Shown here in pieces: positions 214 to 10,864 of a stretch of 10,903 nt of DNA. The position numbers were made by a program, and so were the translations under genes. The notes beneath the pieces were generated by a model. It made no database searches and was not told the origin of the DNA. It saw only the letters and a program-made list of their open reading frames with translations. Each line of letters begins with the position of its first letter. Positions within the stretch are counted from its first letter, which is position 1. Source of the stretch: Pavlovales sp. CCMP2436 (Eukaryota; Haptophyta; Pavlovophyceae; Pavlovales); contig MU631899.1 of the NCBI GenBank assembly GCA_026770615.1, positions 69,767 through 80,669 of the forward strand. Direction: 5' to 3'.

Positions 214-254
214 ACAACAGATTACCCTAACCGGTGGGCACTTCGTCAGCGGAG

Positions 255-318
255 GTGCGTGCGTGCATGTGTGTGTGCGTGTGTGTGTGCGTGCGTGTGT
301 GTGTGTGCGTGTGTGTGC
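255..318. repeat. TG/CA dinucleotide microsatellite
   Basis: The segment alternates (TG)n with interspersed GTGCG units. An open minus-strand frame through it encodes only alternating His-Thr/His-Ala, so the repeat is not treated as coding. It falls inside the presumed second intron of the minus-strand gene. Confidence 0.9.
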
Positions 319-371
319 AGGTAGGAGGCTACTAACCCATTCGCAGTAAGTAACCCGCATTTATGAATTAC

Positions 372-1003
372 CTTGTCGCCGACCTGGAAGCGAGTAGGCA
401 CCGCGTGGTTCTCCGCCACAACGTCGTACTCGATTCCGAGCGCCTGCAGCCGCCCGCGCGTGGTGAAGGTGGAGCGAAAGAAGAGCACGAGAGAGCCCAA
501 CGGGTCGAGGCCGCCGGGTGCGATGCGCATGCGCGAGGGGGGCACGTTCTCCTCGATCTGCCCATCATCATACTCGATATCATAAACACCGTTGCGCAGC
601 ACCTTGTTCACCGTGCCCGGCTGCCACGCGCCGCGGCCGAAGCGGTTCGCGACCACGTGCGTACCCGGCGGGAAACCAATAGTCCACGCGAGCAGCGCAG
701 AGAGCAGTTGGTTGACGTACGTGCGCCGGCGAATGCGGACTGCGGTCAGCCCGTCCTCCTGCGGGCATGGAGGGGACGCGCGGGGAGGGCGGGTTCGGCC
801 GGGCTCGGAGGGGACGCGCGCGCGGGTGGGGGGGGGAAGGGGGGCACCTCAGCGTACACGTCGTAGTCCACCGAGAATGTCGTCTCGCCGTGCTCCTGGT
901 GCAGGATGTGGGTGACGATGCCGGGGAGCCAGAGACCCTTCGCCTCGGCGTCGACCACCTCCCCTTCCTTGATCGGGAACGCCCAGTCGTACAGTATCGG
1001 CAT
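372..1003 (-). CDS. Tudor/Agenet-like domain protein, two exons visible, 3' end missing
   Basis: Exon 1 (1003-848) and exon 2 (758-372) join in phase 0 and give 181 codons. Two beta-barrel-like repeats are visible. The first is spread over exon 1 and the start of exon 2 (LWLPGIV, then VDYDVYAE joined to EDGL and RIRRR). The second lies near residues 85-125 (AWQPGTV, GVYDIEYDDG, EENVP, SRMRI). The pattern W-x-P-G-x-V ... Y-x-I-x-Y-D-D-G ... R-x-R is typical of Tudor/Agenet-like modules common in algal and oomycete proteins, which usually bind methylated residues or act as scaffolds. The start at 1003 is the first ATG of the good-looking region; another in-frame ATG lies at 1132 but the sequence between is not domain-like. 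Exon 2 ends FQVGDK at a strong donor (GTAATT, 371-366), which resembles the first strand of a third module. Further exons probably lie beyond the window. Function is otherwise unknown. Confidence 0.62.
759..847 (-). other. Spliceosomal intron (89 bases) in the Tudor-like gene
   Basis: On the minus strand the donor is GAG|GTGCCC at 848/847 and the acceptor is CCCGCAG|GAG at 759/758. The intron is strongly C-rich with several C homopolymers. Removing it joins two open frames in phase 0 and completes the first Tudor-like motif (YAE joined to EDGL). Without the splice the exon 1 frame runs into low-complexity Pro/Ala sequence, which supports the intron. Confidence 0.7.
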
Positions 1004-1141: not shown

Positions 1142-1514
1142 ATGAGCACGGCGCCGTCGGGCGTGCTGCTGAGCGCGTCACTGAGCGCGCCGCCGCCGCC
1201 GAATGCACAGTCGGTCGTGTCGCCTAACGCGGCCCTGAGCGGGACTCCGGCACGGAGCGCGGCGCACGATGCCGAGTCAAGCTCCATGCACATTTTTGTC
1301 GTGATCTTCGCTGGCCAGACGCTGGTGGTCGAGGTGAAGCCATACTTCACAGTCGAGACGGTCAAGGACGCTATCACGCTCAAGACCGGCATCGCACGCG
1401 ACCTCCAACTCCTCACCTGCGAAGGCAAGCGGTTGGATGACCAGCACTCACTCGTCGAGTGCGGCGTCGGAGAATCATGCGACGCTGCGCCTCACGAGCC
1501 GCATGAGAGGCGGC
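1142..1514 (+). pseudogene. N-terminal ubiquitin domain of the retroelement polyprotein (one frameshift)
   Basis: From ATG 1142 there is a 48-residue Ser/Ala/Pro-rich leader, then a ubiquitin fold from Met 1286. It aligns with ubiquitin without gaps if a single extra base near 1466-1470 is discounted: MHIFV at the start, T-V-E-T-V-K at ubiquitin positions 22-27, EGKRLDD at 46-52, ATLRL at 65-69 and RMRGG at 72-76. Lys equivalents 27, 33 and 48 are kept; 6, 11, 29 and 63 are not. The hydrophobic patch is changed (L8 to Phe, I44 to Thr, V70 to Thr). The Gly-Gly is at 1509-1514 and is followed by Ala, as in precursors cut by deubiquitinases. The frame continues past Gly-Gly into the rest of the polyprotein, so I infer a fusion that host proteases could release. 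An alternative is a host ubiquitin-fusion gene lying next to the element. Confidence 0.7.
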
Positions 1515-2200
1515 GCGCCAAACGACCCCTCCTTCGCAGCCAGCATTGTAGTCTCCTACAACAAGATATACGCGCAGCTTCACGCGGCGGGCGGCCCGAT
1601 CAGGGTAGAGCGCTCTAGACCGGGTCGCGAGCTTGCACGCGCGATCCTCGCTGCGGTGCCCGTCGCGCCGAAAGGCCATCGAGCCTAGCGAGATCCCCCA
1701 GCGACAGAGCCGTGCAGATGCGCAGAAGGCCCGCGACAAGACGCTCAAGATTGCATTCAATGTGAGTTGCGGCAAGGGGCTGCACATCGACAAGCTCTGC
1801 CGCATGGTGCAAGGCTGCACAGTGGCTCATGAGCTCGCGACCACCTTGATCTTCGCCGTTTGCCAGCGTGCACTGCAAGTCATCGACGAGGCTGACACAC
1901 TTGCCTTCGACAAAAACCGCAACCGAGTCATCGCTCTCGTCCTAGATGATGTGGACATTTTCTCCAACTACCGCACCACCGGATGGATGGGGCTCAGTGG
2001 CGGAAGTGGCTCGACCTCAGCTCAGGCCAACCGGCCCTCGCTCTTCGAGGCCCATGCTGCCAAGCATGCCTTTAGGGTCCGGGCGCAAGCTGATGCCAGC
2101 GTGTTTGCGAACATGCTCACAGTCGCACGCAAAGATGCCCTCGACAACGCCGCCAACGTTGCCGACGAAGCTGCAGCTACACTCCTAGCCCAACTCTTGA
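1515..2200 (+). pseudogene. Unrecognised helical region after the ubiquitin domain
   Basis: This follows Gly-Gly directly (APNDPSF...). It is open in one frame to about 1670, then continues one frame over after an extra A in an AAA run, up to about 2200. It is rich in Ala, Arg, Asp and Lys, with amphipathic stretches such as TTLIFAVCQRAL and ASVFANMLTVARKDA, and no Cys/His finger pattern. The position corresponds to the Gag/ORF1-like or DNA-binding region of other retroelements, but I see no motif that proves this. It could be a nucleic-acid-binding or oligomerisation module. Confidence 0.4.
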
Positions 2201-3085
2201 CGGGGAAGCCCGGAAGGACCACATCGCCGGCTCCATACCACTGTTGCAGCCGCTGCCAAGACCGCCAGCTCAGCCACCGCCGCCACCGCCGCAGCTGCGG
2301 CCACCGCAGCGGCCGCCACTGCATCGCGATGCGTATGACGGAGGCTACAGGCGCGGCCGTGGTGGGGGAGGACGGGGGGGGGGTGCAGGAGTGCGCGCGC
2401 GCAGCGATTGCAACACGCTTTCTGGTGGGCATGGGAGACTGCTACCACCACCCCGTCGTCAATGGCAAGCGCCATCGTCGAGCGAGGACGTCGAGCGCCC
2501 AACCATGCCCCTACCCACACGGCCAAACGCAGACCCGACCGGCCGCGACTTCTCCGTCCTCGACCACCTCACTGCTGCCAAAGTCGCCGGGGACGCGGGG
2601 AACACGTCTCGGCAACTCGATGCCATACCCCGAGACTTCCACGAGCCCTGGGCCGCCGCGACAGTCCTCGTCATCGAAGCCATCCGCAACTCCGGGCCGG
2701 ACAACGAGGTGGAGGAGGTGCGAGCGCTGAAGGCGCTGCTGATCCTACCCTCGCTACTACTCCGAAAGCAGCCCGCGGCCCGCGGGTGCCGCGAAGGACG
2801 TCTGGCGAGCGCCAGACTGCTCGCCTTCCGCTTCGACCGATGGGGGCGGGGAGACTTTGGCAGCCTCGTTGCTGACTAGTCTGGAGACTCCGCGGCGGAG
2901 GTACAGCAGCGCAGCAGCCGGCGCTCCCGTCCAGCCAACCCCGAGCGAGACATCAAGGCGGCCGTCGCCCTTCTCGCCAAGGGCAAGTTCTCCGACGCCA
3001 CAAAGCTGCTTCAGAGCCACGGCCTCGCTGACATCGCGGACCCGGCCGTGCTCCAGCAGATGCTCGCCAAGCATCATCTGCCCGG
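2200..3085 (+). pseudogene. Pro-rich and Gly/Arg-rich linker and conserved pre-RT region
   Basis: After a shift near 2200 the frame encodes a polyproline stretch (about 2246-2325) and then a Gly/Arg-rich segment (GGYRRGRGGGGRGGG, about 2338-2385, over a 10-base G run), which suggests RNA binding. From about 2530 it becomes globular: residues around ALKALLILPSLLLRKQPA and LLAFRFDRW resemble the pre-RT region of RT proteins with a RPIG..RR motif. A TAG at 2877-2879 interrupts it, yet the same frame continues sensibly afterwards (DIKAAVALLAKGKFSDATKL at about 2949-3008, a helical repeat-like unit seen ahead of such RTs) up to a 1-base loss in a G run near 3085. Confidence 0.5.
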
Positions 3086-4141
3086 GAGGTCCCCGTGCCA
3101 GCGGTCATCCCGGGCCTCGATACCACCAACCGTCTCGTTGTCGGCGTCACGGAGATGGAGGAGGCATACCGAGGGCTCAAGACCGACAAGGCACAGGGTG
3201 CCTCGCCCTGGCGATACGAGTACCTCATCCCACTCGCCCCGACGGAGCCTTTCGTGGGCGACGCTGCACGCCACGTGCTCGGGTCGCACGCCTGGCTGGC
3301 ATCATCCTTCGCCAACAGCGATCTGCCCCCCTGGTTCTACTTCGTCTTCTGCGCCGCACGGTGCGTGCCACTCTGCAAGTGTGCGGCCCAGGCCGGCGTC
3401 GCGGAGTCTGCGCGGCCAATCGGCATCTCGTGCGCGCTGAGACGGGGTCTCACCAAGAGAGTCTTCCTCAACAAGGGCCTTTGTGGCAAGATCGAGGACT
3501 ACCTCTTCCCACAGCAGCTGGGAGTGCTCGTCTCGGCAGGCGGGACGAAGCTCATCTTTGGCGTGCGCGAGCTCCTCGAGAACCCCAGCTTCTGCATCGC
3601 CGGCTCCAACATCTACAACGCCTTCAATGAGGAAGACCGCGTAGAGATGGTGGCGCGCACCCTCGCCAGCTCCTCCGGCCTTGCCCCGCTCGCACGCCTC
3701 TTCTACGTCACGCTTGCCCCCAAGTACCCCATCTTCGTCAGCGGCAAGGGCGGCGGCTTGACGCCCATGGGCAGGGACGGCGAGACGGGTGTCGCCAAAG
3801 GGTCGGTGGAGGGCGGAGTCGCCCTCGCGATCTCCATCCACCCCGAGCTACAGGTGCTGGACGCAGAACTGCGGCCATACGGTGGGGGCGCTCGGGCCGG
3901 CCACGACGATGTACGGGCGGTCGGCCCGCCCCATATCGTCTTCCCGGCGATGCAGCGCTTCCATGACGCGCTCTTCGCGCAGCTCGGCCTCGTCGTGCAA
4001 CCGGCTAAGTGCGAGTGCTGGATCGATGAGGCCCACATCGATTCCCTCGACACCCATCGCGGCCTAGTGACGCGCAGTCACCTACGCGACGGCGTGACTC
4101 CGTACTACGGCGTCATGTGCTACGGCATCCCTATCGGTTCG
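3086..4141 (+). pseudogene. Reverse transcriptase domain, catalytically degraded
   Basis: The open frame holds the RT fingers and palm: a LKTDKAQGASPWRYEYL-type N-terminal motif (about 3173-3226), ARPIGISCALRRGL (from about 3413), PQQLGVLVSAGGTKL (about 3509-3553), motif A region at 3590-3628 (GSNIYNAFN, where the family has V-D-x-S-N-A-F-N), motif B at 3779-3814 (TGVAKGSVEGG, where the family has Q-G-D-P-L-G-P), motif C at 3899-3913 (GHDDV) and LVVQPAKCE after it. The order and spacing are those of RVT_1 domains of non-LTR retroelements. The motif A Asp appears replaced by Asn and motif B has lost Q-G-D-P, so polymerase activity is unlikely although motif C keeps Asp-Asp (3905-3910). The frame is cut by the solo LTR right after GIPIG. 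Confidence 0.75.
4137..4141 (+). repeat. Left target-site duplication GTTCG of the solo LTR
   Basis: GTTCG at 4137-4141 is repeated at 4390-4394, immediately flanking the LTR. Both copies sit within the RT coding frame. Confidence 0.8.
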
Positions 4142-4389
4142 TGTCAGGCTACGGATCCAGCGTAGTGCTGGTCTGGCCGCAGACACTGAGTGGACTATCA
4201 GTGGTTGATCACCAGTCCGGGCGCAGAGCCGGATTCAGACTGTTACGTCGGGATTTTGGGGCTCGTGTCCTCATTTACCTTTCGTGTAAATGTAGGATGT
4301 TAGACACTTCGACCTGCTTCCCGAGGCTCGAAATCCGACTAGCGCTGCAAGGACTAGTCGAGAGAAGGACCAGATCTGCGCACCCAACA
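4142..4389. mobile_element. Solo LTR (248 bases) inserted in the RT frame
   Basis: The insert begins TGTCAGG and ends CCCAACA, so it has 5'-TG...CA-3' ends with a 3-base TGT/ACA terminal inverted repeat, and is flanked by 5-base GTTCG duplications. It separates two halves of one reading frame: GIPIGS before it and EEYNKLAL after it. It carries a perfect 7-base stem, CATTTAC (4272-4278) with GTAAATG (4286-4292), and near its end CTAGCGCTGCAAGGACTAG (about 4339-4357), which recurs inverted at 9343-9361. Size, ends and 5-base duplication fit a copia- or gypsy-type LTR left after LTR-LTR recombination. The family is not recognised, and orientation is assumed, since TGT...ACA is symmetric. Confidence 0.82.
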
Positions 4390-4394
4390 GTTCG
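4390..4394 (+). repeat. Right target-site duplication GTTCG of the solo LTR
   Basis: This is the second copy of the 5-base duplication. The reading frame resumes directly after it. Confidence 0.8.
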
Positions 4395-5490
4395 GAGGAG
4401 TACAACAAGCTTGCCCTAGCTGGTAAGTGTGACGAGATCGCATGCATCTCAACCAAGCTAATCACTTCGCTCAGCTCGTCACACAAGCAACAGTTCTGGC
4501 TCTTAACCCTCTTCTCCACGGCGCGCAAATTCGAGTACTTTGCGCGGCACTGCTACCCGGACCACTCGCGCGAGGCATGCACCCGCTTCGACGCGATCAT
4601 CCACGCGCAGGCGACGCACGCGCTAGGAGTCTCGCTCGACGACGATCAGTTCGCGACCGCCCGCCTCGCGCTTCCCCAACCGTGGCGCCGGACTTCGGCG
4701 AATGGTCGACATCGCGCCGGCCGCCTTCTGTGGCGCCATGGTGCAGGCGGTGCCAGCCTTTCTCGACATGTGGGCCGACGCGACCAACCCGGCCAGCGGC
4801 ATCACGCAGCGCGGGATGCTCGAGCTGCCGCAGGTCGGGCGCACGGTGGGGCGGAACTCCTTTGTGGACATGCAGCAGCACGGCTGGCGCGCGTACCAGC
4901 TGCCGTCTTCCGGGGCAGGCTCTCTGTCACCGCCGCTACAGGGACAGGCCTTCCGCCGCTGCTGGTTGCTGCTGCAGCAGGAGGCCGGTATCGCCACAGG
5001 AGCGGGGCCCAACCAAGATCGGCCAACCTCCGTGCTCCACCTACCTCCAGATAAAGCATGGCCGACGGCGCGCAGGAGCGCCGGCAGGCTGTGCCTCAAC
5101 ATGCAGAAGGACCCCACCGACGACCTGAAGGCTCACCGGTACGACATGCTCAAGATGCAGATCAACGCGCGACACCGCAGCGATCGCGCCGTATGTACAC
5201 CTCTTCAGGAGCCTCGATCGCAACAGCTCCGCATGGGTCGCTGCGCTAGCGAGCGGCTACGGGCTCTGCAACACCGGCGAGTGGGCGGAGATCACCTCGC
5301 GCTTCTTTGGCGTCCAGAGCCCCATCTGCGCCGGCCTCGTCGCGCGCGGCTCGCGGCTCTTCGGCCACCTCATCGACGCGTTCGGAGACAACCTCGTCGC
5401 AGCCACGGGCGCAGGCGTCACCGGCGGCCACATCGCCACGCTCCGGCACGACCCGATCCTCGCCCTCCTCGCGGAGTTCGCGAGGGTCCG
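4395..5490 (+). pseudogene. Post-RT thumb/linker region with decayed zinc-site-like segment
   Basis: The frame resumes with EEYNKLALAGKCDEIA and a helical stretch (FWLLTLFSTARKFEYFARHC), the usual thumb region after this type of RT. An extra C in a CCCC run near 4677 moves the frame to RGAGLRRMVDIAPAAFCGA, matching the G-G-L-G-L-R...A-P-A-A-Y block typical of the family. A further shift near 5190 leads to YVHLFRSLDRNSSAWVAAL and then DAFGDNLVAATGAG with GGHIATLRHDPIL (about 5376-5462). In relatives this is Cys-x-Cys-G ... D-P-x-G-D-H-x-x-x-C followed by RH-x-x-x-R-D. Here the His and the last Cys are Asn and Ala, so the putative zinc site is lost. Confidence 0.55.
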
Positions 5491-6211
5491 TGGGTGCATT
5501 CGCGCGCACCGAGGTTGAAGACATCTTTGGCTCGGTGCTCGCCGCCAACCCAGCGGCCTACCACCTCTACTACGGCGGAGTCGGCCGGCGACCCGGGCCG
5601 AAGGTCGACTTTTACGCCGAGTACGACCACTGGGGTGGGCGTGCAGTCCCGCGGCTATTCGAACTCAAGACCATCGTGTTCTGCCCTACTCGGTACAGGG
5701 ACACCGACGGGCAGTACCCGCAGGGCGCGGTGGGCAGGTGCGCCGACGCGCTACCTGGCGAGCGCATCATGGAACTCATCAAGCTCGACCGCGACTTCTT
5801 CCACACACCAGCCGGGCAGACTGGCCCAATGGAGGCCCGCGCGCTGACCTTCTGTCCCCCAGGCGGCAACCCGTTCACTGCTCTCGCAGTTGCCGCCTTT
5901 GGGGAGTTTTCGGTCGGCTTGGAAACGCTGGTCGCCGACTTCGCCAGCATGGGCGCACGCGCACTCGAGGGCGCACGTGAGCTCCCTCCGAACAGCTCGC
6001 ACGCACCGCCCTCCTGTGGAAGATGCGGCAGGAGATCGGTATGTGCGCCTTGCGTGGACACGCAATGGTCATCATAGCGCGCATACGTATGGAGAACATC
6101 GGTGGCGGCGGCGCGGCACACGGTGGCGCAGACGGCGACGGCACCGAGGAGTGGGCTAAGGGCGTATACCACCAGCGACAAGAGACACGGTCGTTGCATG
6201 AAGCCGCGTAG
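5491..6211 (+). pseudogene. C-terminal PD-(D/E)XK-like endonuclease region and tail
   Basis: The open frame from about 5490 begins GAFARTEVEDIFG. The core is PKVDFY (Asp at 5607-5609), an 18-residue gap, then LFELKTI (Glu 5661-5663, Lys 5667-5669), which fits the D...E-x-K signature of restriction-like endonucleases placed after the RT in RLE-type non-LTR elements. The stretch LIKLDRDFF (about 5776-5802) may be a later helix of the fold. Near 5988 one base is missing; the frame then continues EQLARTALLWKMRQEIGMCA and ends at the TAG 6209-6211. Unlike the RT, the nuclease residues look preserved. The fold is inferred from motif and position only. Confidence 0.55.
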
Positions 6212-6303
6212 GCCCGCCACCTGAGCGATCACTGGCTGAATTCGTCAGCCGTACACATCAGATTTGCCTGAATGCTGCTGCCTTTCTTCCTATTAAGTGA
6301 GTC
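6049..6303 (+). repeat. Left arm of a ~250-base inverted repeat (retroelement 3' end)
   Basis: The reverse complement of this stretch matches 10612-10864 with roughly 18 differences and one short gap, judged by eye. It covers the last ~54 codons of the element plus the 3' UTR. The pair flanks the PP2C gene and its spacers at a distance of about 4.3 kb. Confidence 0.9.
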
Positions 6304-6320
6304 ACAGCGAAAAAAAAAAA
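6212..6320 (+). other. Retroelement 3' UTR and A-run
   Basis: About 92 bases separate the stop from the point (about 6303) where similarity to the inverted copy ends. An 11-base A run follows at 6310-6320. The inverted copy has no matching A run at its 3' side, so this tract may be a tail specific to this copy or a chance homopolymer. Confidence 0.5.
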
Positions 6321-7272: not shown

Positions 7273-8385
7273 TTAATCAAGCTTCGTCGGTTGCCAAGGT
7301 AGCATCGTCGGCTGCTTCCTGGGCAGCTTGTGCCCGTGCAGGCTCTGAGTCTGGCCAAGGCGCTCCTTTCCCTTGGACTCCGACAGGGTGAAAGAGTCTG
7401 AATCGCTTTCGCGAAACGACCGCACATCGCCTGATCCGTCCTCGTTCGGGGCCGTGTTGCGTCTGGGCCGGGTGCCAATGCTGAGGATCGAGCGCGCCCG
7501 CGACTTCATTTTCTCGCTGAGCGACATGGACGGAGGGTCGTCGGCGTCGTTGCGCGCGTCGACGCAGAGGATCGTGGCGTCGTCGATCTCCAAGTTTGTT
7601 TTGGTTGTCGCGCGCAAAATAGCATTTGCAAGCCAGGCCGCGCCACTTCTCGGTTTGTGGCTCTGCTGCGCGAGCTTCTCGATGTGCGTCTTGCTGACAA
7701 AATCCCAGACCCCGTCCGAGGCGATAACGATCATGCCGCCTGACGCCGGCAGCGTGATGGTGCGCACTTCGGGTAAGGGAATTGCCGCCGGCGTCGAGTC
7801 TCTGTCGCCTATCGATCTACTCACGCCCAAACCTCCCGGGTAGATGCGTTCCGGCCCGACAGGAAGTCCGTTGCGCCCCTTGATCCGGCCGATTGCCGCT
7901 CCTGCCTTCATGAGGCGGTCGTGCTCGGTGGGCGTGCGGCGCTCGACGCGGTGGTCGGCGCTAAGGATGATCGTCCCATCCTGAGCATAGAGAATCGCTA
8001 TGCTGTCGCCCACGTTGGCCGTCGTCACCTCGTCGCCGTCGACGATCACGCACGTCGCGGTCGTGCCGTCGCCGCACGTGGGCGACGCGATTCGGAAGAG
8101 CTCGTCGGTCTCGAGGAACGCCGAATTGCACGCGGCGCGAATCCGCCCGGCACGGCTCGCGCCCGGCGCGGTCGCGTAGTGCTTGGCGATGAGCATAGGC
8201 AGGTGCTCGCAGCAGTAGCGGGCGGCACGCGGGCCACCGTGTCCATCAAAGACGCCAAAGAAGTGCACGACAGCGCCCGGCTCGAGCTCGATGGTGCAGG
8301 AGCGCGATGTGTCCTCGCCCTTGACAGAGTAGCTCGATTTGGCCTTCACGATGCGCCGCGGCGGGAGCGCGGGGTCCACCTTCAT
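7273..8385 (-). CDS. PP2C-type (PPM family) serine/threonine protein phosphatase
   Basis: Single uninterrupted frame of 370 codons from the ATG at 8385-8383 to TAA at 7275-7273. PPM/PP2C phosphatases are Mg/Mn-dependent enzymes that remove phosphate from Ser/Thr in signalling proteins. Motifs in order (numbering from this Met): KGED (22-25, metal-side Asp), FFGVFDGHGG (42-51), GDGTTAT (105-111), ANVGDS (123-128), LSADHR (141-146), GVSRSIGD (187-194), VIASDGVWD (220-228) and IDDAT (267-271). The metal-ligand Asp residues expected for the family (DG, SDG, DD) are all present, so it should be active. After the ~275-residue catalytic core there is a Ser/Arg/Lys-rich, probably disordered tail of about 95 residues. 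No transmembrane helix or clear signal peptide is seen. The frame stays open upstream to 8472 but without an ATG, so an upstream exon is possible. The substrate is unknown. Confidence 0.9.
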   Translation of the reverse strand: MKVDPALPPRRIVKAKSSYSVKGEDTSRSCTIELEPGAVVHFFGVFDGHGGPRAARYCCEHLPMLIAKHYATAPGASRAGRIRAACNSAFLETDELFRIASPTCGDGTTATCVIVDGDEVTTANVGDSIAILYAQDGTIILSADHRVERRTPTEHDRLMKAGAAIGRIKGRNGLPVGPERIYPGGLGVSRSIGDRDSTPAAIPLPEVRTITLPASGGMIVIASDGVWDFVSKTHIEKLAQQSHKPRSGAAWLANAILRATTKTNLEIDDATILCVDARNDADDPPSMSLSEKMKSRARSILSIGTRPRRNTAPNEDGSGDVRSFRESDSDSFTLSESKGKERLGQTQSLHGHKLPRKQPTMLPWQPTKLD

Positions 8386-8801
8386 TATGCAGCTGCAGGG
8401 TACGCGAGCCTCTGGGTACGCGAGCAAGAGGTAGCTCAAGACGACGCTTCGGACAACGTCGTCCCACTGCAAAACCTTTCGATGTTGATTGATTCGATTG
8501 TATTTTTATGGTGTTTTCTTTTTTTAGACTACATCTTGGTTCATTCTGTATGTTACTGTTAGTTTCTTGTTAAACGTACTGTGAAGAGCGTTGAAAAACA
8601 CTCAAATCCGGGTTCGCCGCGCCTTGCTTAGATCTTCCATAGAGGTATAAAATTAAAATGACGTGCGCTAATGCGCAGCCGGGGGCGGTAATCTCCAACC
8701 CCTGGTCTAGTCCCAGGCGGCGGGGTGTCTCAATGATCCTCCACTTATCTTAAAAAAACTCTCAACTCATCTAGGGTGGTTGCGGTTGTTGGCCTGGGAT
8801 A
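8386..8801. other. 5' flank of the PP2C gene and spacer with short inverted repeats
   Basis: Bases 8386-8472 stay open in the PP2C frame (VVLSYLLLAYPEAR...). On the minus strand TTTTGCAG ending at 8467 could be a splice acceptor, so this may be 5' UTR or part of an exon. On the plus strand TATAAAA lies at 8646-8652, of unclear meaning. AACCCCTGGTCTAGTCCCAGGC (about 8695-8716) is partly complementary to GCCTGGGATAAGGGGTT (about 8791-8807), so this spacer may be an outer part of the foldback that follows. No RNA gene was found. Confidence 0.45.
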
Positions 8802-9007
8802 AGGGGTTGGGTTGGGTTCATGCATATCGCAAATATTCGATGCTTGTCCGACCGACCGCTTTTCAAAATGAATTTATTTATAAAAGGTCCCAGGCGCAAT
8901 CAAATTCTCAACTGATTGCGTCTGGGACTACATTTGAATACAGAAAATCCATTTTTGAAAAACGGTCGGTCGGACAAGCATGATTTCACTGGTAAACCCA
9001 ACCCCCT
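8802..9007. mobile_element. ~205-base foldback (MITE-like) element
   Basis: Two arms pair across a loop centred near 8905. Left segments and their complements on the right are AGGGGTTGGGTT (8802-8813) with AACCCAACCCCCT (8995-9007); GATGCTTGTCCGACCGACCG (about 8839-8858) with CGGTCGGTCGGACAAGCAT (about 8963-8981); and GGTCCCAGGCGCAATC (8886-8901) with GATTGCGTCTGGGAC (8914-8928). The loop is about 12 bases (AAATTCTCAACT). There is no coding capacity beyond a short chance frame. Long near-perfect arms with almost no unique centre are typical of foldback or MITE-type non-autonomous DNA elements, and an extended hairpin RNA precursor is another possibility. Confidence 0.7.
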
Positions 9008-9310: not shown

Positions 9311-9361
9311 TGTTGGTGTTAGCCGGTCGCTCCATCTCTCCTCTAGTCCTTGCAGCGCTAG
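9311..9361 (-). mobile_element. Probable LTR end fragment, reverse orientation
   Basis: Compared with the reverse complement of the right end of the solo LTR (4339-4389), this 51-base stretch has the same length. It starts with the same TGTTGG, has a diverged middle, and then matches at about 28 of 31 positions, including the 19-base CTAGTCCTTGCAGCGCTAG at 9343-9361. Similarity fades after 9361. I infer a diverged or truncated relative of the same LTR family in opposite orientation; a shared short motif by chance is less likely but possible. Confidence 0.5.
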
Positions 9362-10554: not shown

Positions 10555-10611
10555 GTCAGATATGACTAAATGCTGACCGATGGGTTGACCGAGGACTTGA
10601 TTTCTTACTAC

Positions 10612-10864
10612 GACTTACTTAATAGGAAGACAGGCAGCAACAGTCAGGCAAATCTGATGTGTGCGGCCGACGAATTCAGCCAGTGATCGCCCAGGTGGCG
10701 GGCCTACGCGGCTTCATGCCACGACCGCGTCTCTTGTCGCTGGTGGTATACGCCCTCAGCCCACTCCTCGGTGCCGTCGTCGTCTACGCCACCGTGCGCC
10801 GCGCCGCCGCCACCGATGTTTTCCATACGCGCGCGCTATGATGACATTTGCGTGTCTACGCAAG
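10612..10864 (-). mobile_element. 5'-truncated, inverted copy of the retroelement 3' end
   Basis: On the minus strand this matches 6049-6303 at roughly 93% by eye. It covers the last codons of the polyprotein, the stop and the 3' UTR, in the same order. Similarity ends abruptly at 10864 (after CGCAAG) on the 5' side and near 10612 on the 3' side. A short 3'-end fragment is what 5'-truncated target-primed reverse transcription leaves. No convincing target-site duplication was found. It proves that the 3' end of the central element is a dispersed repeat. Confidence 0.8.

What the first reader, a model, noticed from the sequence alone, without database searches (positions are those of the whole stretch)
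1142..3085. Ubiquitin domain fused to the front of an RT/endonuclease retroelement polyprotein
A gap-free ubiquitin fold (once a 1-base shift is discounted) ends R-M-R-G-G and is followed by Ala, with the frame continuing toward the RT. Known facts: ubiquitin precursors and fusions are cut after Gly-76 by host deubiquitinases, and some non-LTR elements carry their own cysteine proteases (Ulp1-like, OTU-like). Inference: this element may use host deubiquitinases to separate its N-terminal leader and ubiquitin from the Gag-like/RT part, or use the ubiquitin as a stability or folding tag. Loss of several Lys residues and of the Ile44 patch suggests it is not a normal conjugated ubiquitin. I know no well-described element of this layout, but cannot search.
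Basis: partly seen in the sequence, partly recalled or inferred. Interest (0 to 1): 0.82.

Follow-up and report, generated by a model that had tools for sequence, protein, structure and literature searches.

The report
Jumping gene with built-in ubiquitin domains
In a marine alga, a family of copy-and-paste jumping genes carries two ubiquitin-like domains in its own long protein, perhaps so that the cell's own ubiquitin-cutting enzymes can separate its parts.

Summary
Confirmed, with corrections. Window 1286-1517 encodes a ubiquitin domain (Pfam 1.2e-9) with a private frameshift, ending RMRGG|A, upstream of a gag-like region, an RT (nearest solved structures R2 and LINE-1) and a PD-(D/E)xK-like domain. 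It is part of a decayed, multicopy non-LTR family in the haptophyte Pavlovales sp. CCMP2436. The window copy is 5'-truncated at 1148 (7 of 7 relatives), so the ATG at 1142 is flank. Fuller copies add a second ubiquitin and an ankyrin, perhaps F-box, region upstream. 33 of 43 loci with this ubiquitin have the RT within 6 kb downstream. Gly-Gly|Ala follows both ubiquitins in both subfamilies, though ubiquitin-2 is only 61-68% identical between them; its R-G-G codons differ synonymously only. Best reading: host deubiquitinases release the parts, as in pestiviruses with inserted ubiquitin. Cleavage is inferred; ubiquitin-2 lacks Ile44; the gag-to-RT frame is straight in only three copies, each with stops. 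The two outside RT relatives with a usable N-terminus lack ubiquitin. Nine literature searches listed no such element.

The parts
1148..6320 (+). 5'-truncated, decayed copy of a non-LTR (LINE-type) retroelement, up to and including the run of A (6310-6320)
   Evidence: 5' edge: all 7 relatives given to one search align from exactly 1148. 3' end: shared sequence ends near 6303 with different flanks.
1148..1285 (+). remnant of the Pro/Ser-rich linker between the ankyrin region and ubiquitin-2
   Evidence: Matches the same stretch in L040-L046.
1286..1517 (+). ubiquitin-2 domain, 77 codons including the following Ala; private frameshift at 1468/1470
   Evidence: Pfam ubiquitin 1.2e-9; matches the L041 domain at 98% and 100% in two frames.
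1509..1517 (+). Gly75-Gly76|Ala: predicted deubiquitinase cut after 1514
   Evidence: G75 in 7 of 9 and G76 in 9 of 9 subfamily A copies; 18 of 18 and 17 of 18 in subfamily B. Codons differ only synonymously between subfamily majorities.
1518..2228 (+). gag-like region of unknown fold, frames shifted in this copy
   Evidence: 89% identity to the L041 segment over 1657-2148; no Pfam family.
2229..2504 (+). Pro-rich then Gly/Arg-rich linker, resembling a nucleic-acid-binding tail
   Evidence: Read directly; the same stretch is open in C34 and C104. Function inferred.
2505..3134 (+). pre-RT region
   Evidence: 70% identity to the C4 copy.
3134..4138 (+). reverse transcriptase: NAFNE, GVxxGS and GHDD motifs; in this copy the motif-A Asp reads Asn
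   Evidence: 126 own-genome matches. Family profile hits R2 protein 3.2e-5 and LINE-1 ORF2p 9.6e-4 in the PDB. RVT_1 in relatives P0012 (5.7e-6), P0013 and P0006, all below its cut-off.
4142..4391 (+). stretch of about 250 bp with no counterpart here in relatives: probable later insertion
   Evidence: RT and C-terminal matches are adjacent in C34 (4488/4489) but separated here.
4392..5401 (+). C-terminal region between RT and nuclease-like domain
   Evidence: 48-70% identity to L033 pieces in three frames.
5490..6005 (+). PD-(D/E)xK-like nuclease candidate: Asp codon 5607-5609, Glu-Leu-Lys 5661-5669
   Evidence: D and E-L-K invariant in 6 of 6 aligned sequences (3 Pavlovales-type, 3 outside relatives 29-31% identical). 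No PDB match and no meaningful Pfam match.
6006..6303 (+). 3' end shared by copies, taken as 3' untranslated
   Evidence: 87-95% identity to 8 of 8 copies L048-L055 over 5901-6302 or beyond.
10601..10864 (-). second copy of the element's 3' end, inverted
   Evidence: Inverted repeat of 6049-6314, 91%; shared end at 6303.

Best explanation
This is a non-LTR retroelement family of the haptophyte Pavlovales sp. CCMP2436 whose long coding region reads: tandem-repeat N-terminus - ubiquitin-1 - GG|A - ankyrin (perhaps F-box) region - Pro-rich linker - ubiquitin-2 - RGG|A - gag-like region - RT - PD-(D/E)xK-like nuclease. The ubiquitins most likely serve as processing tags: host deubiquitinases cut after each Gly-Gly and release the leader, the ankyrin protein and the gag-RT-nuclease part, each new N-terminus beginning with Ala. 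Shown: the order of domains, their spread in many copies, ubiquitin-2 and gag in one frame, conservation of both tails. Likely but less firm: one frame from gag through RT. Inferred: that cleavage happens, and what the ankyrin piece does.
For: Two ubiquitin domains in one open frame of 769 codons from ubiquitin-1 to gag (C426). Ubiquitin-2 and gag share a frame in 14 of 15 stitched copies (window start read). Ubiquitin-1 to ubiquitin-2 is one frame in 3 of 7 copies (C426, C104, C38). Gag, linker and RT region read straight in C34, C104 and C4. Both tails end Gly-Gly|Ala in both subfamilies, although ubiquitin-2 is 61-68% identical between them. Between subfamily majorities 25 of 77 ubiquitin-2 codons changed residue, but R74, G75 and G76 changed only synonymously (3 of 3; Fisher one-sided p=0.034, window chosen after the fact). 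Median dN/dS between subfamilies: ubiquitin-1 0.42 (one B copy), ubiquitin-2 0.47, ankyrin region 0.19, gag 0.49, pre-RT 0.20, RT 0.49, C-terminal 0.38, nuclease 0.33, all well below 1. The host has Peptidase_C12 and USP-type (PF00443) genes and a ubiquitin-L40 fusion gene (L001, recognised by eye). Precedent: cellular ubiquitin C-terminal hydrolases cut between inserted ubiquitin and NS3 in pestivirus CP Rit (PMC8310069, passages).
Against: Ubiquitin-2 has lost Ile44 (Thr) and Arg42; ubiquitin-1 of subfamily A has Lys at 44 and Pro at 74; this may weaken recognition by many deubiquitinases. 4 of 27 ubiquitin-2 copies have a changed R74, G75 or G76. The tail test rests on three codons. No copy that I examined is open from ubiquitin-2 to the RT: C34 and C4 share one frame over that span but hold 3 and 2 stops, C104 holds 3 between ubiquitin-1 and the start of its RT. 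Across gag to pre-RT the net frame is the same in only 6 of 16 copies, window apart, so a second ORF or a frameshift signal is not excluded. No transcript or protein evidence. The two outside relatives that can be judged do without ubiquitin.
Confidence: 0.5

Rival explanations
1. The ubiquitin domains are uncut ubiquitin-like modules that bind host partners (proteasome shuttles, Cdc48-type unfoldases, chromatin readers) or help the long protein fold and stay soluble.
For: Loss of Ile44 and Arg42 in ubiquitin-2 means it is not ordinary ubiquitin; the domain as a whole is under purifying selection (dN/dS 0.47).
Against: Uncut modules need no Gly-Gly (recalled); here Gly-Gly|Ala follows both domains in both subfamilies, with synonymous-only change of R-G-G in ubiquitin-2.
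Confidence: 0.25
2. The N-terminal half (ubiquitin, ankyrin, perhaps F-box, ubiquitin) is a captured ubiquitin-pathway gene used as an effector, for example to steer a host silencing factor to degradation; the tails are a leftover of its origin.
For: Ankyrin repeats (Ank_4 1.3e-5 in A, 1.9e-5 in B, both above cut-off) and a weak F-box (E 0.016-0.041, A only) sit between the ubiquitins. The region has the lowest dN/dS, 0.19.
Against: The F-box is below Pfam's cut-off and was not reported in the two B stretches scanned. No search for a free-standing host gene of this layout was made. Not exclusive of processing.
Confidence: 0.12
3. Ubiquitin/gag and RT are two products: two ORFs, or one joined by ribosomal frameshifting, so that the ubiquitins serve only the first.
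For: Net frame from gag to pre-RT agrees in only 6 of 16 copies. Metagenome relative P0001 is predicted to start at the Met after the Gly/Arg-rich linker. C4 has a stop in the linker.
Against: C34 and C104 read straight and open through the linker; the shifts in the others differ in sign; the C4 stop is a one-codon change, and C38, C32, C278 and C325 have Gln there.
Confidence: 0.15
4. Passive hitch-hiking: a host ubiquitin sequence was swept in by recombination and has no function in the element.
For: Nearly all copies examined are decayed; ubiquitin is absent from P0009 and P0012.
Against: Both domains are present in two diverged subfamilies with dN/dS below 0.5.
Confidence: 0.05

Closest known systems
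R2-group (RLE) non-LTR retrotransposons
   Same: RT followed by a C-terminal PD-(D/E)xK-type nuclease (here by motif only); the RT profile's best PDB match is R2 (3.2e-5).
   Different: R2-like ORFs have a CCHC motif (PMC3636483, passages); a pattern search found none in 7 of 8 relatives and one odd hit inside the RT of P0001. Motif C reads GHDD where R2 reads FADD. Two ubiquitins and ankyrins at the N-terminus.
NeSL/Utopia elements with Ulp1-like protease, and Dualen with OTU protease
   Same: Non-LTR elements that tap the ubiquitin/SUMO world (Utopia/NeSL: PMC4640811, passages; the OTU domain of Dualen is recalled).
   Different: Those encode a protease; this one encodes ubiquitin, the substrate, and no protease family was matched.
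Cytopathogenic pestiviruses with inserted host ubiquitin
   Same: Ubiquitin inside a polyprotein, cut by host ubiquitin hydrolases (PMC8310069, passages; insertion also in PMC9550988, passages).
   Different: There a host insertion in single strains of an RNA virus; here two diverged domains shared by a whole retroelement family.
Ubiquitin-ribosomal protein fusions (UBL40, S27a)
   Same: Ubiquitin joined in frame to a partner through Gly-Gly; the same genome has one (L001).
   Different: The retroelement domains are diverged and internal.

Membership tests
Ubiquitin family (PF00240) | Profile match above curated cut-off | tested here: met
   38.2 bits against 25.4 in the window; two stretches, 80.1 bits in all, in L041.
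Ubiquitin family (PF00240) | C-terminal Gly-Gly | tested here: met
   Ubiquitin-2: G75 in 25 of 27 and G76 in 26 of 27 copies. Ubiquitin-1: first Gly 14 of 14, second 11 of 11 where covered in A; both in the one B copy.
Conjugatable ubiquitin | Ile44 patch and Arg42 | tested here: not met
   Thr44 and Leu or Phe42 in ubiquitin-2.
Non-LTR retrotransposon (LINE) | RT related to LINE/R2 RTs | tested here: met
   R2 3.2e-5, LINE-1 9.6e-4, one other RT 1e-3.
Non-LTR retrotransposon (LINE) | A-rich 3' tail | tested here: met
   A run of 5 or more A in 6 of 10 copies whose 3' end was seen; short or none in L048, L051, L054 and the second window copy.
Non-LTR retrotransposon (LINE) | 5' truncation of copies | tested here: met
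   Window copy cut at 1148. Matches rise toward the 3' end: ubiquitin-1 16 loci, ubiquitin-2 43 loci, RT 126 matches, nuclease 152 listed with more unlisted. Query lengths differ and counts are lower bounds.
Non-LTR retrotransposon (LINE) | Target-site duplication | tested here: inconclusive
   None obvious by eye around 1148 and 6320 in the window copy; other copies not looked at.
R2-group RLE element | PD-(D/E)xK nuclease after the RT | tested here: inconclusive
   D...ELK invariant in 6 of 6, but no PDB profile match and no meaningful Pfam match; structure prediction was not accepted.
R2-group RLE element | CCHC zinc motif before the nuclease | tested here: not met
   Pattern search of 8 of 15 relatives: none in P0006, P0009-P0013 and P0015; one odd CxC hit inside the RT of P0001. 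Own-genome copies not searched.
Dualen/NeSL/Utopia | Own OTU or Ulp1 cysteine protease | tested here: not met
   No protease family in 7 long ORFs or 10 of the 15 relatives; the N-terminal gaps could hide one.
Deubiquitinase-processed polyprotein | Cleavage after Gly76 in cells | not testable with these tools
   No protein or transcript data.

The most novel reading that the evidence does not exclude
A retrotransposon that uses ubiquitin as an internal spacer at two sites and relies wholly on host deubiquitinases as its maturation protease, releasing an F-box/ankyrin adaptor as an accessory protein that turns the host ubiquitin ligase machinery against a silencing factor.
Probability: 0.28. 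Interest if true: 0.87.

Novelty: new variant of a known kind. Interest (0 to 1): 0.71.

Why it matters
Non-LTR elements that carry ubiquitin/SUMO-type proteases are known; one that carries the substrate, twice, would invert that theme. If the cuts are real it would be, as far as the nine literature searches here show, the first retroelement whose polyprotein maturation depends on host deubiquitinases. It makes the question of how a long LINE protein separates its gag-like and enzyme parts testable with a simple cleavage assay.

Tried and rejected
Chance neighbour or host ubiquitin gene: rejected by co-occurrence in 33 of 43 loci. The 10 without a listed RT within 6 kb are C632, C161, C38 (which has the pre-RT part, then N), C565 (two), C276 (which has the nuclease about 3 kb on), C314, C110, C220 and C342; I did not look further into why. 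Of 16 ubiquitin-1 loci, 11 have a ubiquitin-2 match downstream; of the other 5, C184, C170 and C221 have an RT match downstream and C229 and C194 do not. Assembly artefact: disfavoured because two subfamilies on many contigs agree. Virus-borne: 3 scans of viral contigs found no relative. Relatives with ubiquitin elsewhere: none; 4 hits, all the same alga; both hit the candidate limit, and saw only proteins of about 173-550 residues, so this is weak. Rfam: nothing in the window or in 4 copies. EN by sequence: no PDB match; one chance-level Pfam row, 0.26. Literature: nine of ten searches; only listings were seen, and no title or abstract there describes a ubiquitin-bearing non-LTR element; most subscription papers are not held.

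Limits: dN/dS includes some wrong-frame matches, so the gag and RT values are soft (the far RT group was 3 loci); ubiquitin-1 rests on one B copy. Within-subfamily pN/pS was 0.25-0.65. Co-occurrence was counted by hand from printed lists that the tool calls lower bounds. The host name comes from names given to homologous proteins and one matching contig length (202375 bases). After the recount of frames I lowered the main reading from 0.55 to 0.50 and the novel case from 0.30 to 0.28, and raised the two-product rival from 0.10 to 0.15.

Full report
What is there. The window is C546:69767-80669 of a 119-Mb, 703-contig genome. Names of homologous proteins and a matching contig length point to the haptophyte Pavlovales sp. 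CCMP2436 (taxonomy). A ubiquitin domain at 1286-1517 is certain (Pfam 1.2e-9). It runs in frame 2 to 1468 and in frame 3 from 1470; none of the 26 other ubiquitin-2 copies printed has this break. The tail is R-M-R-G-G followed by Ala.

It is a repeat family. Of the 50 matches I count 43 element loci: 22 at 78-100% identity (subfamily A, window included) and 21 at 45-64% (subfamily B); 3 split pieces and 4 other ubiquitins were dropped. The RT piece has 126 matches and the nuclease piece 152 listed, with more unlisted. In 33 of the 43 loci an RT match lies within 6 kb downstream on the same strand; about 0.0025 per locus is expected.

The layout. The C426 copy (L041) has one open frame of 1071 codons with two ubiquitin domains. 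The order seen in copies of both subfamilies is ubiquitin-1, a region with ankyrin repeats (Ank_4 above cut-off in both; F-box only weakly and only in A), a Pro-rich linker, ubiquitin-2, a gag-like region, a Pro- then Gly/Arg-rich linker, RT, C-terminal region, nuclease-like domain. For B, ubiquitin-1 rests on C38 and a partial match in C221. N-terminal to ubiquitin-1 in A is a tandem-repeat stretch that runs into assembly gaps in three of four A copies read upstream. Ubiquitin-1 was found at 16 loci, 11 of them with ubiquitin-2 downstream.

Frames. From ubiquitin-2 into gag the frame is kept in 14 of 15 stitched copies (window start read). From ubiquitin-1 to ubiquitin-2 it is kept in 3 of 7 (C426, C104, C38). 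From gag to pre-RT the net frame agrees in 6 of 16, window apart, and reads straight through the linker in C34, C104 and C4. The shifts in the others differ in sign, as expected of decay in a repetitive tract, but a frameshift signal or a second ORF is not excluded. Stop-free spans include ubiquitin-1 to gag, 769 codons (C426), ankyrin to gag, 726 (C591), and RT to nuclease, 833 (C162). C34 and C4 hold 3 and 2 stops between ubiquitin-2 and the RT or beyond. No copy that I examined is open from ubiquitin-1 to the nuclease.

The window copy. All seven relatives given to one search align from exactly base 1148, so the ATG at 1142 belongs to the flank and the copy is 5'-truncated inside the linker. 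Its 3' end is near 6303, followed by a run of A at 6310-6320. It carries frameshifts, an Asn in place of the motif-A Asp, and about 250 bp of unrelated sequence after the RT. The rise in match number from ubiquitin-1 to the 3' end fits 5' truncation by target-primed reverse transcription (mechanism recalled), though the queries differ in length.

Which element. A profile of the family with its distant relatives matches R2 retrotransposon protein (3.2e-5) and LINE-1 ORF2p (9.6e-4) among solved structures; three relatives hit RVT_1 below its cut-off. Motif C reads GHDD. The C-terminal domain keeps D and E-L-K in 6 of 6 aligned sequences, a PD-(D/E)xK-like signature that no profile search confirmed. 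A run of five or more A follows the 3' end in 6 of 10 copies. A CCHC motif was not found in 7 of 8 relatives searched, with one odd hit in the eighth. So it looks like an RLE-type LINE, but membership of the R2 group is not established.

Where ubiquitin came from. Most outside RT relatives (24-44% identical) are fragments that start inside or near the RT. Only P0009 (1250 residues) and P0012 have an N-terminal region to judge, and neither has ubiquitin. P0001, 72% identical, starts after the Gly/Arg-rich linker and says nothing about what lies upstream. Searches for ubiquitin-gag relatives found only the same alga, with both searches at their candidate limit. So the ubiquitins look like a lineage addition older than the A/B split.

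How it may work. Gly-Gly|Ala follows both ubiquitins in A and B. Between subfamily majorities 25 of 77 ubiquitin-2 codons changed residue, yet R74, G75 and G76 each changed only synonymously (p=0.034, a small test chosen after the fact). Median dN/dS between subfamilies is 0.19-0.49 across the parts. Ala at a new N-terminus is a stabilising residue (recalled). The host has C12 and USP-type deubiquitinase genes. In a pestivirus, cellular hydrolases cut a ubiquitin inside the polyprotein (PMC8310069, passages). Hence the best reading is a ubiquitin-spaced polyprotein cut by the host. Against it: Ile44 and Arg42 are gone from ubiquitin-2, ubiquitin-1 of A has Lys44 and Pro74, and 4 of 27 ubiquitin-2 copies have a changed R-G-G. 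The domains may instead be uncut modules.

Novelty. Nine literature searches (listings seen) showed no ubiquitin-bearing non-LTR element. Utopia-1_TSP and NeSL families of nematodes encode Ulp1-like proteases (PMC4640811, passages). This element carries ubiquitin, the substrate, instead. I rate it a new variant of a known kind.

Noticed in passing
window 10601-10864 (-): Inverted second copy of the element's 3' end, at the end of the contig.
   Followed up: partly
window 7276-8505 (-): Ordinary host PP2C phosphatase ORF (Pfam 1.7e-35).
   Followed up: no
window 246-845 (-): Agenet/Tudor-like ORF (1.7e-5, just under the cut-off), probably a host gene next to the insertion.
   Followed up: no
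window 4142-4391: About 250 bp inserted after the RT; bases 4339-4369 match 9331-9361 inverted, perhaps a short mobile repeat.
   Followed up: no
window 8840-8981: 29-base inverted repeat with 84 bases between the arms, MITE-like.
   Followed up: no
L089/L008 (C38), upstream of the B-type ubiquitin-1: Frames with a DDE-like look by eye (HSDNATHFKS, FGAPGHG), possibly another mobile element.
   Followed up: no
L015 (C61): RT frame continues into a different but related D...EMK nuclease-like tail, hinting at tail swaps between families.
   Followed up: no
L066/L090 (C229): A ubiquitin-1 to ankyrin copy that ends before ubiquitin-2.
   Followed up: partly
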